Shown piece by piece: positions 17,914 to 34,891 of a stretch of 43,856 nucleotides of DNA. Source of the stretch: Mycoplasmataceae bacterium (GTDB lineage: Bacteria > Bacillota_I > Bacilli_A > Mycoplasmatales > Mycoplasmoidaceae); NCBI GenBank assembly GCA_031262935.1, contig JAISGU010000029.1, forward strand, positions 1 through 43,856. Reading direction: 5' to 3'. Position 1 is the first letter of the stretch; each line of letters starts with the position of its first letter. A program made the translations under genes and the position numbers. Under the pieces are notes generated by a model, which did no database searches, was not told the origin of the DNA, and saw only the letters and a program-made list of their open reading frames with translations.

Positions 17914-18665
17914 GAATATTGCAACCCATTGGGTGGTGTGAAGGCGTAAAACAAGCCATTAATAATTTAAATAAAATAATTAAAAAGCACAAGAATAATA
18001 TTTATTTAATTGGCCAACTAATTCATAATAAAGAAACTATGAATTACTACATTAAGAAGGACATTAAAATCCTTGATGGAGTTGATAGATTAAAACTAAT
18101 TAAGAGCATAAAAAATAAAGATGCTACAATTGTTTTTTCTGCTCATGGAACATCGCAAAATATTATTGACTACGCTAATCAACACTTTAAGCATGTATAT
18201 GATTTAACTTGTAAATATGTTAAAGCTAATTACCTATTAGTTAACAAGTTAAAAAGCCAAGGACATAGTGTTACATACTATGGCAATAAGAACCATCCTG
18301 AATCTATTGCGATGAAAAGTCTAGGGATTTCATTTAAACCAAGTAAAACTTCTATATTAATTAATCAGACTACAATCCCATTAATTAAGGTAAAGAAAAT
18401 TCAACAAAAATATAAATGTAAATGAATCCCTACCACATGTTTAGCTACAAAAAAAATCCATCAAAATATATTAAAGCTTCCAATTCATAGTCAACTATTA
18501 GTAATTGGTGATAAAAATTCTAATAACACTAAGGAATTAATTGGTTTAGCAAAACAGCACCAATTAAAAGTTAATTGTAAGTTTGATGAATCTAAAGTTC
18601 TTTATATAACAAGTGGTACATCTGTTAGTAAAAAACAAGTTCATGAAGCAATTAAATCACTTTAA
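17901..18665 (+). CDS. ispH: 4-hydroxy-3-methylbut-2-enyl diphosphate reductase
   Basis: IspH is the last enzyme of the MEP isoprenoid pathway; it makes IPP and DMAPP using an Fe-S cluster. The product is 254 aa, shorter than the usual 280-320. The three cluster ligands are present: Cys13 (GWCEGV), Cys104 (DLTCKYV) and Cys180 (TTCLAT). His42, SAHGTS and the YYGNKNHPE segment are also kept. One UGA-coded Trp lies at 175. The ATG is inside the toxin gene, so it is probably read from the toxin-antitoxin transcript. The gene overlaps the convergent atpB stop by 4 bp. No other MEP gene is in the window. Confidence 0.93.
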
Positions 18666-19465
18666 ATATTAACATTTGGAATTGCAATTACTTTTGGCTC
18701 TTCGTTATTATTAATTTCATAATTACCTTCTTCCATTGCTAATTTTCAATAAACAATTGTTAGTTGTGTAAATACTAAAGCTTGGATTAATCCACATAAT
18801 AAATCAAAATATCCATGAAGTGGTGGAGCAGTTAATCCTCCTAATACATTTAATACACCAATCACAGGAATCTTTGCTTGCAAATTACCTCATAAGAAAA
18901 ACCACAAAGAGATAACTGTTCCACCAGCAAAGATGTTTCCTCAAAGACGGAAAGATATGGAAATTAATGGTGTAATTACTTCAACAATATTTAATGGATT
19001 AACCATTATTCCATAATGTTTCCCTGTCTTTTTAGATTTTATCTTAATGCAAAATCTTGTTAAATAAGATAACTTTTGATATCTAAAACCGATAACAAAA
19101 GTACCAAAAAACATAATTAAACCAAGTGATAATGTAACCGTTAATGAACTTGTTGGATTTTCTAATCCTAAAATGCCAATCATGTTGCTTAATATTAAAT
19201 AAGACATTAGAAATATAAAATATGGGGTTAGTTTTTCTAATTTTTTTCCTAAAACTTCTACAACCATATTTCTAATGTATTCAACATAGATTTGCATAAT
19301 TAAAACAAATCCTCTTGGTGTTTCATTAACTTTTACTTTTTTAAGCTTTGTATAGTAAATTACAATACAGATAGTTAAAATAACTAAAATAATTAAAATA
19401 GTCAATACCTGAGGTCTTAGTTTTAAATAGTCTTTATCAGCTGCTCATTGTCCTAACGCGCCCAT
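18662..19465 (-). CDS. atpB: ATP synthase F0 subunit a
   Basis: Subunit a forms the proton half-channels against the c-ring. The product is 267 aa and polytopic. The essential Arg is Arg173 in SFRLWGNIFAGG. The last helix motif HGYFDLLCGLIQALVFTQLT is conserved. The start overlaps the atpG stop as TAATG, so it is translationally coupled to atpG. Normally atpB opens the operon ahead of atpE; here it is the last gene and atpD and atpC are absent after atpG. Convergent with ispH. Confidence 0.96.
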
Positions 19466-20343
19466 TATTGAACACTCCCTGAAGCACCAGAAACAATTTC
19501 ATTAATTTCTTGAGTAATATGCTCTTGTCTTGCACGATTAAATTGAATGGTTAAATCATCAATTAAATCCTTAGCATTATCTGTTGCTGTCTCCATTGCG
19601 TTTCTTCTTGCCCCATTCTCACACACTCTAGATTCAGAAATAGCAGCAAAAATTGATGTTGTTAAGTAAATTGGTGAAGCACCATCAATAATTTGTTGTT
19701 TACTTGGTTCATAAAGGATTTCTTTTTTTGTTTGATCAAGATCAACTCTTGAAGGAATTTTATTTTCTTCATTAGTTTTAAATAGTGAGTAGTCTAATGG
19801 AAATATTTGCAAATCTGTTGGTTGAAATGTAAGTGAATTAATAAATTTACTATAAACAATATGAACAGAATTGATATTATCTTTAGAATATGCTGTCATT
19901 ACTTTTTCAGTAACTGGTAATAATTCAAAATAATTAACATTACTATCACTTATTTCAACGAAATCAACTATTTGATCTTGCAAATTATGTGCTTTTAAAT
20001 ACGCATATCCTTTTTGACCTATAACAATAATTTTATCTTGCTTGGATACTAATGTTGTTAAATGCTTACAAACATTAATATTAAAAGATCCGCATAATCC
20101 AAGGGAAGATGAAATTAAAATTCATAACTTACTATTTGATTTGTGTTGATCTTTAATATTTGGAACTGTTCGTGCAACATCTTCAATAATTTGATAAAAA
20201 TCATGACAAAAACTACTAACAACTTTAAATTCGTTCATTTGTTTTTTTAATTTAGCAGTTGCAACTAAACGCATTGCTCCTGTAATTTTAGAAGTTGTTT
20301 GTACTGATTTAATTCTTCTTTTGATTTTATCAAGTGATTGCAT
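19465..20343 (-). CDS. atpG: ATP synthase F1 subunit gamma
   Basis: Gamma is the central rotor shaft of F1. The product is 292 aa. The N-terminal coiled coil (MQSLDKIKRRIKSVQTTSKI, ITGAMRLVATAKLKK) and C-terminal coiled coil (ARRNAMETATDNAKDLIDDL) are both typical. The ATG lies 2 nt after the atpA stop. It is followed directly by atpB instead of atpD. Confidence 0.97.
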
Positions 20344-20345
20344 AA

Positions 20346-21908
20346 TTATTTAACATCTAACTCTTTAATATCACCATATTGTTTAATATCATATTTCTCA
20401 ATTCCTGTAATAAAAGTTTTAATAAATTTTTTATATTCATTCTTTAATGATTGAGTTAATTTATCATCGAATGCTTTTGTTTTAACTAATGCTTTTCTAA
20501 TTTCAGAAGATTTAAAATGAGCAATAATCTGTGATTTGAAATCTTCAAAATTATCTAATGGAATCCATTTAATTAATCTTTCCTTGATAGCAAACAACAT
20601 AATCGCTTCATCAATTTGATCAATTGGCTCGTTTTGTGGTTGTTTAATCATTAACATCACGCGTTTACCATGTTCAAGTGTTTTCTTAGTTTCAATATCA
20701 AGATCACTACCAAATTGACTAAAAGCATCAAGTTCTCGATATTGTGCTAATTCAAGTTTTAAACTTCCTGACATTTGTTTAATACATTTAATTTGTGCCG
20801 CACTACCAACACGAGACACAGATAACCCAGCATCAATAGCCGGTCTTTGACCAGCATTAAATAATGATGCCATCATAAATAATTGACCATCAGTAATGGA
20901 AATAACATTAGTTGGAATGTATGCCGAAATATCACCAGCTTGTGTTTCAATAATAGGCAACGCCGTAATTGAACCACCACCGTTTTCATCGTTTAAACGA
21001 CAAGCTCTTTCTAATAAACGCGAATGTAAATAGAAGACATCTCCAGGATAAGCTTCACGACCTGGTGGCCTTCTTAACAATAATGATAAAGTTCGATAAC
21101 TTACGGCATGTTTAGATAAATCATCGTAAATAATTAAAACGTTCTTCCCTTGGCTCATTCATTCTTCAGCAATAGTTATTCCTGTATAAGGAGCGATATA
21201 TTTGATTGCAGGTAAATCACTTGCTGTCGCACTAACAACACATGTGTATGCTAAAGCATCTTTAGCATTCAATGTTCTCACTAATTGTGCAATTGATGAA
21301 TTTTTTTGACCGATACCAACATAAACACAATAAACGTTCTTACCTTTTTGATTAAGAATCGCATCTAGGGCGATAGTTGTTTTTCCAGTTTGACGATCAC
21401 CAATAATTAATTCACGCTGCCCCCGACCAATTGGAAACATGCTATCAATTGATAAAATTCCCGTCTCTAAAGGAACACTAACTGATTTTCTAGTCATAAC
21501 TCCTGGTGCAATTTTTTCGATTGGCATAAATTTCTTGGCAACAATTTCGCCTTTTCCGTCAATAGCGTGTCCTAATGGATTAACGATTCTTCCAATCATC
21601 TCATCTCCAACCGGTACAGAAACTACACGATTAGTTCTTTTAACTACACTATTTTCTTTAATGTTTTCAAAATCACCAAGCATAACTACACCAACAAAAT
21701 CACTCTCAAGATTTAATGCCATCCCAAATGTACCATTTTCGAACTCAAGAAGTTCATTTAACATAACATTGTCTAATCCAGAAACATTAGCAATACCATC
21801 ACCAATAGAAATAACTTTCCCTTCTTGATTAATAGAAGTTTTTAAAGCATACTTTTCGATTCTTGCTTTGATGATTGTTGAAAATTGATCTGCATTATTA
21901 ATTGCCAT
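20346..21908 (-). CDS. atpA: ATP synthase F1 subunit alpha
   Basis: Alpha is the regulatory nucleotide-binding subunit of the F1 hexamer. The product is 520 aa, full length. The P-loop is GDRQTGKT (about residue 170), with [28 protein letters not shown] and the arginine-finger segment [14 protein letters not shown]-coded Trp precedes MSQGKNV. A pairing beta subunit (atpD) is needed for activity but is not in this window. Confidence 0.98.
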
Positions 21909-21909
21909 A

Positions 21910-22464
21910 TTAGTCTCCTTTCTGAATTGATTTAAAAGAATTAGCTTTCATTAAATCTAATTTATTTTTAATGGTATCGTCAATGATTTCACTATTCATT
22001 TTGAGTTTGATTCCCCCAATAATACTCTTATCAACATGATTATGTAATTGAATTTTATTAAAACCATATTTCATTTTTAAACCGTCCGTCAATGCTTGTT
22101 TTTCTTGAATCGAAAGTTGATAAGCAGTAGTAACTTGAATATATTTTATACCAAGAGTGTTTTGACATAGATTCATAAAATTTTTAAATATCTTAATCAA
22201 TTCCTTTGTTCGATTAAAATCAATTACTGACCATAAAAAATAAATTACTTCTCGTGGTAAACAATCAGAAAATAATTCTTTAATTTTATTTTTTCTTTCT
22301 AGCTTATCAATGTTAATATCGTTTAAATAATTAGCAAAATTTTTATCATTATTTAATAAAGAATATAAGGTATGAGCAATATCATAATACGCTTTTACGC
22401 TATTAGTTTTGTTAGCATAATTAAATAAAACTGAAGCATAACTATTAGCAATATTAATAATCAT
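21910..22464 (-). CDS. atpH: ATP synthase F1 subunit delta
   Basis: Delta joins F1 to the peripheral stalk. The product is 184 aa. The N-terminal helical domain ([20 protein letters not shown]) and the C-terminal motif ([12 protein letters not shown], then [12 protein letters not shown]) are typical. The start overlaps the atpF stop as TAATG, and atpA begins 1 nt after its stop. Confidence 0.95.
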
Positions 22465-23072
22465 TATGCAGCTCCTTTATTTAATTTTTTAATAAAATCA
22501 TTAACAATCTTTTTATTTTCTTCATCATCAATATTTTTATTTAATAATGCTTCGGTAGCACTAAAAGCAATATCCATAATTTGCTTTTCATTATTTTCTT
22601 TTAAGGATTGATGTAATTGTGTTGCAGATAGTTTTGCATCCTCAACAATTTTCTTAGCATTATTTTTACCTTCAGATTCAATAGCTTCTTTTTTAACATA
22701 AGCTTGACTAGTAGCATTATCAACAATAATTTTGGCTTGTTCGTGTGCTTTAACTTTTTCTTGCTGAGCTTTTGTTAATTTTTCAAAAGCTTCCCTCTTT
22801 GCTTTTTCAGCTTCAGCAATTTCATTAGCAATATATTCTCTTCTTTTTGCTAATGATTTTTTAGTTGGTTTTCATACTAATCAAATAATTAAAATCAATA
22901 AAACAACCGTTGCAAATACATGACTTAAAAACACTCATACATTTGGTAATAAATCATTTACAACATCACTTGAAGCAATCGGTTGACAACTTGTTAAAGT
23001 TAAACATAGTGGTAAAAATAAAACAATTCCACTAATTAAAAAAATTATTAACTTTTTAAGTTGCTTATTCAT
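22464..23072 (-). CDS. atpF: ATP synthase F0 subunit b, lipoprotein form
   Basis: Subunit b is the peripheral stalk. The product is 202 aa. It has a lipoprotein signal (MNKQLKK, hydrophobic core, LTSC with Cys29), then a membrane segment (about 47-66, VFATVVLLILIIWLVW), then a long charged coiled coil (about 70-165). A lipid-anchored b subunit is known in M. pneumoniae and is a mollicute feature. It lies between atpE and atpH, as usual. Confidence 0.95.
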
Positions 23073-23086
23073 TATCTCCTTGTCTT

Positions 23087-23365
23087 TTATTTAACAACGA
23101 ACAATAATAGAATAGCAACGATTAAACAATAAATGGCAGATGTTTCAGCAATAGCTGCACCAACAATCATCATTGTTCTAATTCTACTTTCCATTTCAGG
23201 ATTTCTAGCTAACGCCTCACAAGCCTTACCAGCAGCATAACCTTGCCCAATACCTGCACCAAGTCCTCCAACAGCCGCAATACCTGCTCCTACCATCCCT
23301 AAACCATGATCGGATATTGATGTATCAGCCAATACTGTCGCAATGTTATTTAATATATCTACCAT
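23087..23365 (-). CDS. atpE: ATP synthase F0 subunit c
   Basis: This is the rotor ring subunit that carries protons. The product is 92 aa with two hydrophobic helices joined by the polar loop ARNPE. The proton-binding carboxylate is Glu74 in AAIAETSAIY. The Gly-rich first helix (GAGIAAVGGLGAGIGQG) is typical. The ATG has a good Shine-Dalgarno (TAGGAGAA). It is the first gene of the operon here; atpB and atpI do not precede it. Confidence 0.98.
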   Translation of the reverse strand: MVDILNNIATVLADTSISDHGLGMVGAGIAAVGGLGAGIGQGYAAGKACEALARNPEMESRIRTMMIVGAAIAETSAIYCLIVAILLLFVVK

Positions 23366-23557: not shown

Positions 23558-23648
23558 TGGCGGACAATAGCGGATTCGAACTGCTGCATGATTTACACCA
23601 TCTAAACGCTTTCCAAGCGTTCCCCTTGAGCCTCTTGGGTAATTGTCC
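23558..23648 (-). tRNA. tRNA-Ser (anticodon GGA)
   Basis: The RNA is 91 nt including an encoded CCA. The acceptor stem GGACAAT/ATTGTCC pairs fully and the discriminator is G. The anticodon stem AACGC/GCGTT holds the loop TTGGAAA, so the anticodon is GGA (codons UCU, UCC). A long variable arm is typical of class II tRNA-Ser. The T-stem has one A-C mismatch next to the last pair. Confidence 0.93.
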
Positions 23649-23650
23649 AT

Positions 23651-23724
23651 TGGAGCAGACAAAGGGAATCGAACCCTCGACCACAGCTTGGGAAGCTATT
23701 GTTTTACCACTAAACTATGTCTGC
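23651..23724 (-). tRNA. tRNA-Gly (apparent anticodon CCC)
   Basis: The RNA is 74 nt including CCA. The acceptor stem GCAGACA has its full partner, the discriminator is U as in tRNA-Gly, and the D-arm GTTTAGTGGTAAAAC and T-arm AGGGTTCGAATCCCT are canonical. The anticodon loop reads TTCCCAA, giving CCC, which reads only GGG. AT-rich mollicutes usually use UCC for this box. It lies 2 bp before the tRNA-Ser gene and is probably co-transcribed with it. Confidence 0.9.
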
Positions 23725-23930: not shown

Positions 23931-24221
23931 ATGAAAAGATTCAAATCAGAAATTTATTGAAGCGATACTAATGAGATGATTGGTACAAAAATTGGCTCAC
24001 ATATAATTACAAATATGCCAAAAGGTAAATTTGTAACGCATAAAGAGTTGAATGAAAGACTTAAACCAATCGAAAAAAGATTAGATTGTATAGAAGCTAA
24101 TATGGTAACTCAAAAAGAATTTAATGAATTCAAAAATAACGTTAACAAAAGATTTATCGCTATTGAAAATAATATGAATATTAGATTTAATCGATTGGAA
24201 AAATTGATCTTAAATAAGTAG
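23931..24221 (+). CDS. DUF16-like coiled-coil protein, copy 1
   Basis: The product is 96 aa. It begins with a 23-residue segment (MKRFKSEIYW then SDTNEMIGTKIGS) that is identical in the second copy at 34598-34891. Next comes the KGKFVTHKELNERL motif, close to the GTKYVTHKQL motif of the M. pneumoniae DUF16 family. A predicted coiled coil with repeated VTQKEFNEFKN and NMNIRFNRLE units follows. Residue 10 is UGA-coded Trp. Shine-Dalgarno AAAGGA precedes the ATG. DUF16 proteins have no established function. It converges on mgtA with a 2-bp gap. Confidence 0.8.
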
Positions 24222-34597: not shown

Positions 34598-34891
34598 TTA
34601 TTGCCTGCTTATGATTAAATCAAGTTTTGAATTTAATTTTGAATTTAATTCATTAAACTCCTTTTGTGTAACCATATTCGTTTCAATATTAGTAAATCTT
34701 TTATCAATAGTATTTTTAAATTCACCGAATTCTTTTTTAGTAACTAATCTATTCTCAATAATCTCTTCTAATTGTTTATGAGTTACGTATTTACCATTAG
34801 TTCCCATATCATTGATTATACGAGAACCGATTTTTGTACCAATCATCTCGTTAGTGTCACTTCAATAAATTTCTGATTTGAATCTTTTCAT
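34598..34891 (-). CDS. DUF16-like coiled-coil protein, copy 2
   Basis: The product is 97 aa and a paralogue of the gene at 23931-24221. The first 23 residues are identical, while the codons differ at six places, all silent. It carries NGKYVTHKQLEEI and VTKKEFGEFKN, the best match here to the M. pneumoniae DUF16 motif (YVTHKQL then VTKTEFKEF). A coiled coil with repeated VTKKEF/VTQKEF units follows. A TATAAT (34926-34921) lies about 30 nt before the ATG, with AAGGAA as Shine-Dalgarno. Function unknown. Confidence 0.82.

What the first reader, a model, noticed from the sequence alone, without database searches (positions are those of the whole stretch)
23931..24221. DUF16-like paralogue pair with a 23-residue N-terminal tag under strong protein-level selection
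Copies at 23931-24221 (+) and 34598-34891 (-) share identical residues 1-23. Over those codons the DNA differs at six positions (AGC/AGT, GAT/GAC, AAT/AAC, ATT/ATC, GGC/GGT, TCA/TCT), all silent. After residue 23 the sequences diverge, apart from coiled-coil units. So the tag is conserved as protein, not as a recent copy. It may be a targeting or partner-binding signal on a variable coiled coil. DUF16 was best known from M. pneumoniae.
Basis: partly seen in the sequence, partly recalled or inferred. Interest (0 to 1): 0.62.

Follow-up and report, generated by a model that had tools for sequence, protein, structure and literature searches.

The report
Tagged DUF16-type coiled-coil protein pair
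Two small mycoplasma proteins share an identical 23-residue start on rod-like bodies that differ, and relatives in the same genus carry up to about 40 genes built the same way, so this design, known mainly from Mycoplasma pneumoniae, is more widespread than described and its function is still unknown.

Summary
Two genes (96 and 97 aa) share residues 1-23 exactly, with six silent and no replacement differences; the rest differs at many replacement sites (Fisher p = 0.002). DUF16 is supported for the body: copy 1 just passes Pfam's cut-off, and copy 2 matches the solved M. pneumoniae MPN010 (2BA2). The 'coiled-coil units' carry the VTxKE beta-layer motifs of 2BA2, so the proteins are probably short trimeric alpha/beta coiled coils. 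No third copy of this exact tag turned up in its own genome (84% complete) or in 36 genomes of its genus. The design does recur. A 36-position profile of other N-terminal tags hits 25 of 36 genomes of the genus at E <= 0.02 (17 at E <= 0.001), up to 41 copies in one ~0.7 Mb genome, and almost nowhere else in the order. In five of seven paralogue sets the tag has lower pN/pS than the coil. Two further family members lie in the window's own genome. The window tag resembles the common tag in position, length and pattern, but sequence homology is not shown. Best reading: a constant N-terminal docking or capping module on a length-variable trimeric rod. Docking is inferred.

The parts
23931..24221 (+). 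copy 1: tagged DUF16-type alpha/beta coiled-coil protein, 96 aa
   Evidence: ORF under code 4; PF01519 40.3 bits, at the gathering score
23931..23999 (+). copy 1 tag, residues 1-23
   Evidence: identical protein to copy 2, six silent differences
24030..24047 (+). copy 1 beta-layer motif 1 (FVTHKE)
   Evidence: positions; same motif as YVTHKQ of MPN010/2BA2 (PMC4786415)
24102..24119 (+). copy 1 beta-layer motif 2 (MVTQKE), 24 residues after motif 1; helix break in the AF2 model
34598..34891 (-). copy 2: tagged DUF16-type alpha/beta coiled-coil protein, 97 aa, between recR and pyrG
   Evidence: PF01519 32.8 bits; phmmer to 2BA2 E 1e-4
34823..34891 (-). copy 2 tag, residues 1-23
34772..34789 (-). 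copy 2 beta-layer motif 1 (YVTHKQ; YVTHKQL identical to MPN010)
34730..34747 (-). copy 2 beta-layer motif 2 (LVTKKE)
   Evidence: helix break in the low-confidence AF2 model
34658..34675 (-). copy 2 beta-layer motif 3 (MVTQKE), 24 residues after motif 2

Best explanation
The two genes are diverged paralogues encoding short, soluble, probably homotrimeric alpha/beta coiled coils of the DUF16 type: an N-terminal module of about 23-35 residues, then a rod of coiled-coil segments broken by beta-layers (VTxKE/VTxKQ motifs). Shown: the sequence facts, the DUF16 match of the rod, the beta-layer motifs, stronger protein-level constraint on the tag than on the rod, and the recurrence of the same design in multi-copy families of the genus. 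Inferred: trimerisation (from MPN010 and the beta-layer literature), and that the tag is a constant docking or capping surface that joins each rod to the same partner while rod length and surface are free to change, mostly in whole heptads so that the register is kept. By analogy with M. pneumoniae (insertions in two DUF16 genes reported to alter gliding or satellite growth) the likeliest setting is internal scaffolding, but that step is weak.
For: Tag 0 replacement/6 silent versus rest 46.8/22.2. DUF16 Pfam hit at cut-off for copy 1 and 2BA2 phmmer hit with shared YVTHKQL. MPN010 has beta-layers at exactly these motifs, and the proteins in that survey are homotrimers apart from the SLH domain (PMC4786415). 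AF2 breaks helices at most of the motifs. No TM or signal-like stretch: maximum 19-residue hydropathy 0.18 and -0.03. In the genus: 104 tagged small proteins collected; tag pN/pS 0.12-0.28 versus coil 0.31-0.55 in five of seven paralogue sets; coil length in a single class mod 7 in 9/9 (G140d) and 14/15 (G144b). The tag MSIKYKIDDAKKNKNLINDEIKLSRIKSKG is identical as protein in four genomes, with only silent DNA differences. Two more family members in the own genome, C36 and C28. Gliding/satellite-growth report for MPN104 and MPN524: PMC3472980.
Against: Only two copies of this exact tag are known, so its dN/dS rests on one pair. In two of seven relative sets (G141_II, G049) the tag is not more constrained than the coil, and in two sets coil lengths are not in one class mod 7. 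The tag has low AF2 confidence (pLDDT mostly below 50), so its fold is unknown. No partner, expression or localisation data. Homology of the window tag to the common genus tag is not shown (39/1000 shuffles for copy 2, 622/1000 for copy 1). Foldseek gave no useful match.
Confidence: 0.5

Rival explanations
1. RepMP1-like repetitive coding DNA: a dispersed multicopy element whose N-terminus is the recombining constant part and whose coil changes by slippage, with little organismal function, as a source of sequence variation.
For: M. pneumoniae RepMP1 has a conserved proximal part plus variable DUF16 coils and recombines (PMC3472980). In relatives the genes are many, dispersed and often at contig ends. 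One tag group lies next to a truncated tyrosine-recombinase-like ORF.
Against: Silent-only divergence of the tag in the window pair and low tag pN/pS in most relative sets mean that the protein is selected. In the window the copies are near saturation at silent sites, so not recently converted.
Confidence: 0.2
2. Secreted or host-interacting small proteins: the tag or first part of the rod binds a host factor.
For: A M. pneumoniae DUF16 protein was reported to enter macrophages and bind NOD2 through residues 13-90 (PMC11165193).
Against: No signal peptide-like or TM stretch in the window copies; the nearest named relatives are metagenome bins, host contact unknown; a conserved tag with a variable rod does not by itself suggest host recognition.
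Confidence: 0.12
3. Recent duplication plus chance: the tag is identical because the copies are young or gene-converted over the first codons.
For: Codons 1-10 are identical in DNA.
Against: Codons 11-23 have pS 0.75 with no replacement; codons 1-10 offer only 4.3 synonymous sites; the rest is near saturation at silent sites.
Confidence: 0.04

Closest known systems
DUF16 / UPF0134 family (PF01519), e.g. MPN010 of M. pneumoniae, PDB 2BA2
   Same: Rod region: copy 1 reaches the Pfam cut-off, copy 2 matches 2BA2 by sequence; same YVTHKQL beta-layer and second VTKxEF layer; small paralogous family in a mycoplasma
   Different: Copy 2 is below the cut-off; the 23-residue N-terminal tag is outside the matched region; inter-layer spacing is 24 (and 14) instead of 13
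RepMP1 proteins of M. pneumoniae (PMC3472980)
   Same: Conserved proximal part on variable DUF16 coils; coil length changes by whole heptads; multicopy and dispersed in relatives of the window genome
   Different: RepMP1 was described as M. pneumoniae-specific; the tags here are short (23-35 aa); relation to the RepMP1 core was not tested here
Alpha/beta coiled coils with beta-layers (DUF3782/Tcar0761, DUF1640/CCDC90-like, TAA necks; PMC4786415)
   Same: [hydrophobic]-V/A-T-K/H/Q-x-E/Q motifs as N-cap and internal layers; in G049 and G140 relatives regular spacings 13, 17 and 20
   Different: No sequence relation shown to those proteins beyond the motif; no endonuclease, membrane anchor or adhesin head

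Membership tests
DUF16 (PF01519) | Whole-protein score at or above the Pfam gathering score (40 bits), copy 1 | tested here: met
   Copy 1 scores 40.3 bits, just over
DUF16 (PF01519) | Whole-protein score at or above the Pfam gathering score (40 bits), copy 2 | tested here: not met
   Copy 2 scores 32.8 bits, E 1e-7; described as a DUF16 relative, not filed as a member on this score
DUF16 (PF01519) | Sequence relation to a solved member | tested here: met
   phmmer of copy 2 to 2BA2 (MPN010), E = 1.3e-4, aligned 33-82, YVTHKQL identical
DUF16 (PF01519) | Homotrimeric coiled coil with two beta-layers, as in MPN010 | not testable with these tools
   Motifs present and AF2 helices break at most of them, but monomer prediction only; oligomer state not measured
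RepMP1 proteins | RepMP1 core (about 300 bp) and sRep repeats around the gene | not tested
   RepMP1 core sequence was not fetched or compared
Genus-wide N-terminal tag family found here (profile A2) | Window tag significantly similar to the tag profile built without it | tested here: inconclusive
   Copy 2: 39/1000 shuffles score as high; copy 1: 622/1000. Position, length and the I-G...II pattern agree
Phage or plasmid protein | Relative in annotated phages, plasmids or viral contigs | tested here: not met
   No match at E <= 1 in phages or plasmids, none in viral contigs; weak PHROG coil matches only

The most novel reading that the evidence does not exclude
Relatives of M. pneumoniae known only from metagenome bins carry a large, undescribed family of small proteins in which a short N-terminal beta-hairpin-like module acts as a sorting code: each tag class docks trimeric rods of different lengths to one site, so that a minimal cell builds a scaffold of graded rods from up to about 40 genes.
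Probability: 0.2. Interest if true: 0.7.

Novelty: new variant of a known kind. Interest (0 to 1): 0.5.

Why it matters
DUF16 proteins are among the most numerous unexplained proteins of M. pneumoniae and have been treated as close to species-specific. Finding the same 'constant N-terminus, variable alpha/beta rod' design outside M. pneumoniae, and large tagged coiled-coil families through one genus, gives comparative material for asking what the constant end does, separately from the rod. The G049 and G140 relatives also look like natural alpha/beta coiled coils with up to eight regularly spaced beta-layers.

Tried and rejected
Third genome hit of the tag (C9) is inside a PTS transporter gene: chance. 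Most single-protein hits in the family were ordinary coiled coils or housekeeping proteins. First ORF readings of '-' hits were wrong because genome-search loci are not oriented; redone. Genome contigs, viral contigs, phages and plasmids gave no relative. Synteny at atpE is not kept in relatives; at pyrG only G143 has a tagged gene. Recombinase or cassette organisation: only the MSIKYKI group lies by a recombinase-like fragment; most tagged genes sit singly between housekeeping genes, so rejected as the general rule. Promoter-like match inside both tags: the regions hold no more such sites than shuffles. Foldseek of the model: no usable match.

Full report
What was checked. The window is the whole of contig C10 of a 741,621-base, 46-contig genome estimated 84% complete, read with code 4. 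Its closest named relatives by AtpA are metagenome bins, Mycoplasmataceae Pcl387_bin181 (80%) and Zx50_bin45 (78%); that these come from arthropod (termite or cockroach) guts is my inference from the isolate codes. Two ORFs at the stated places encode 96 and 97 aa, share residues 1-23 exactly, and differ there by six silent changes. By Nei-Gojobori counting the tag has 0 replacement and 6 silent changes, the remaining 63 aligned codons 46.8 and 22.2 (Fisher p = 0.0019); in codons 11-23 silent sites are near saturation (pS 0.75) without a replacement. The duplication is therefore old and the tag is held as protein. Residues 24-42 are intermediate, so the boundary at 23 is not sharp.

What the proteins are. 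Copy 1 reaches the DUF16 cut-off (40.3 versus 40), copy 2 scores 32.8, and copy 2 finds MPN010 of M. pneumoniae (2BA2) in the PDB at E = 1.3e-4 with an identical YVTHKQL. Hartmann et al. (PMC4786415) identify just these stretches of 2BA2 as beta-layers, short strands that interrupt a trimeric coiled coil. The window proteins carry two (copy 1, 24 residues apart) and three (copy 2, 14 and 24 apart) such motifs. AF2 monomer models, of low confidence in the tag, break the helix at the second motif of copy 1 and at the first two of copy 2 but not at the third. There is no signal-peptide-like or transmembrane stretch.

How far the tag goes. The exact tag has no third copy in the own genome or in 36 genomes of the genus. 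But the genus is full of proteins of the same design. A chimeric query of N-termini found tagged small coiled-coil genes in many copies (28 hits in G144, 25 in G141, 23 in G140); I collected 104 proteins. A 36-position profile (A2) matched 25 of 36 genomes of the genus at E <= 0.02, with up to 41 hits in one genome of about 0.7 Mb, two genomes of one related genus and one marginal hit in a third. At E <= 0.001 over 298 genomes of the order it matched 17 genomes of the genus, two of the related genus and one marginal other. The profile holds the two window tags, so their own hits with it are by construction. Two further members with a different tag class lie in the own genome (C36 and C28). Counts are likely lower bounds because assemblies tend to break at these genes. 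Leave-one-genome-out tests support a common tag for most classes. For the window tag itself they do not: copy 2 is borderline and copy 1 not significant. I therefore claim shared architecture, not shown homology, for the window tag. No Pfam, PHROGs or NCBIfam model covers the tag region of the proteins tested.

Selection and length in relatives. In five of seven paralogue sets the tag has lower pN/pS than the coil (0.12-0.28 versus 0.31-0.55); G141_II and G049 are exceptions. Coil alignments are uncertain and can inflate coil replacement counts. One tag is identical as protein in four genomes, including one of the related genus, with only silent DNA differences; binning error cannot be excluded for single contigs. 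Coil lengths fall in one class modulo 7 in 9/9 (G140d) and 14/15 (G144b) genes, that is, they change by whole heptads, while G144a and G141_I are mixed; the p-values ignore shared ancestry. Beta-layer spacings in relatives are mostly 13, 17 and 20, i.e. 7, 11 or 14 plus the six-residue insertion described for hexad beta-layers (the paper's abstract; the arithmetic is mine).

Reading. M. pneumoniae RepMP1 proteins are described as a conserved proximal part on variable DUF16 coils with heptad-number changes (PMC3472980), so the window pair is a further case of a known design, outside the species for which it was described. I favour a constant docking or capping module on a length-variable trimeric rod. 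Structure is supported by motif and homology; docking is inference. Rivals are RepMP1-like repeat DNA with little function, and host-directed proteins.

Noticed in passing
18662-23365 (-): ATP synthase genes run atpE-F-H-A-G and are followed by the F0 subunit a gene where beta and epsilon would be expected; in several relatives subunit a lies upstream of atpE.
   Followed up: partly
L195:3715-3933: In G143 a tagged small coiled-coil gene of another tag class lies directly upstream of pyrG, the same place and strand as copy 2 in the window.
   Followed up: partly
L087 (G049:C4): A relative with eight beta-layer motifs spaced 13,13,13,13,13,17,17: a possible natural hexad-type alpha/beta coiled coil.
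   Followed up: partly
L349:1977-2485, L355:1357-1958: The MSIKYKI tag group sits immediately downstream of a truncated tyrosine-recombinase-like ORF in different genomes.
   Followed up: partly
L039, L051, L053, L054, L056 (G030): Another genus of the family has its own small coiled-coil family with constant ends (MA[KR][KR]SK... and SEAIKHGWN).
   Followed up: no
G144 and G140 contig ends, e.g. L235, L240, L242, L275: Tagged genes often lie at contig ends, so assemblies break there and copy numbers are probably underestimated.
   Followed up: no
23558-23724 (-): tRNA-Ser and tRNA-Gly lie between copy 1 and atpE.
   Followed up: no
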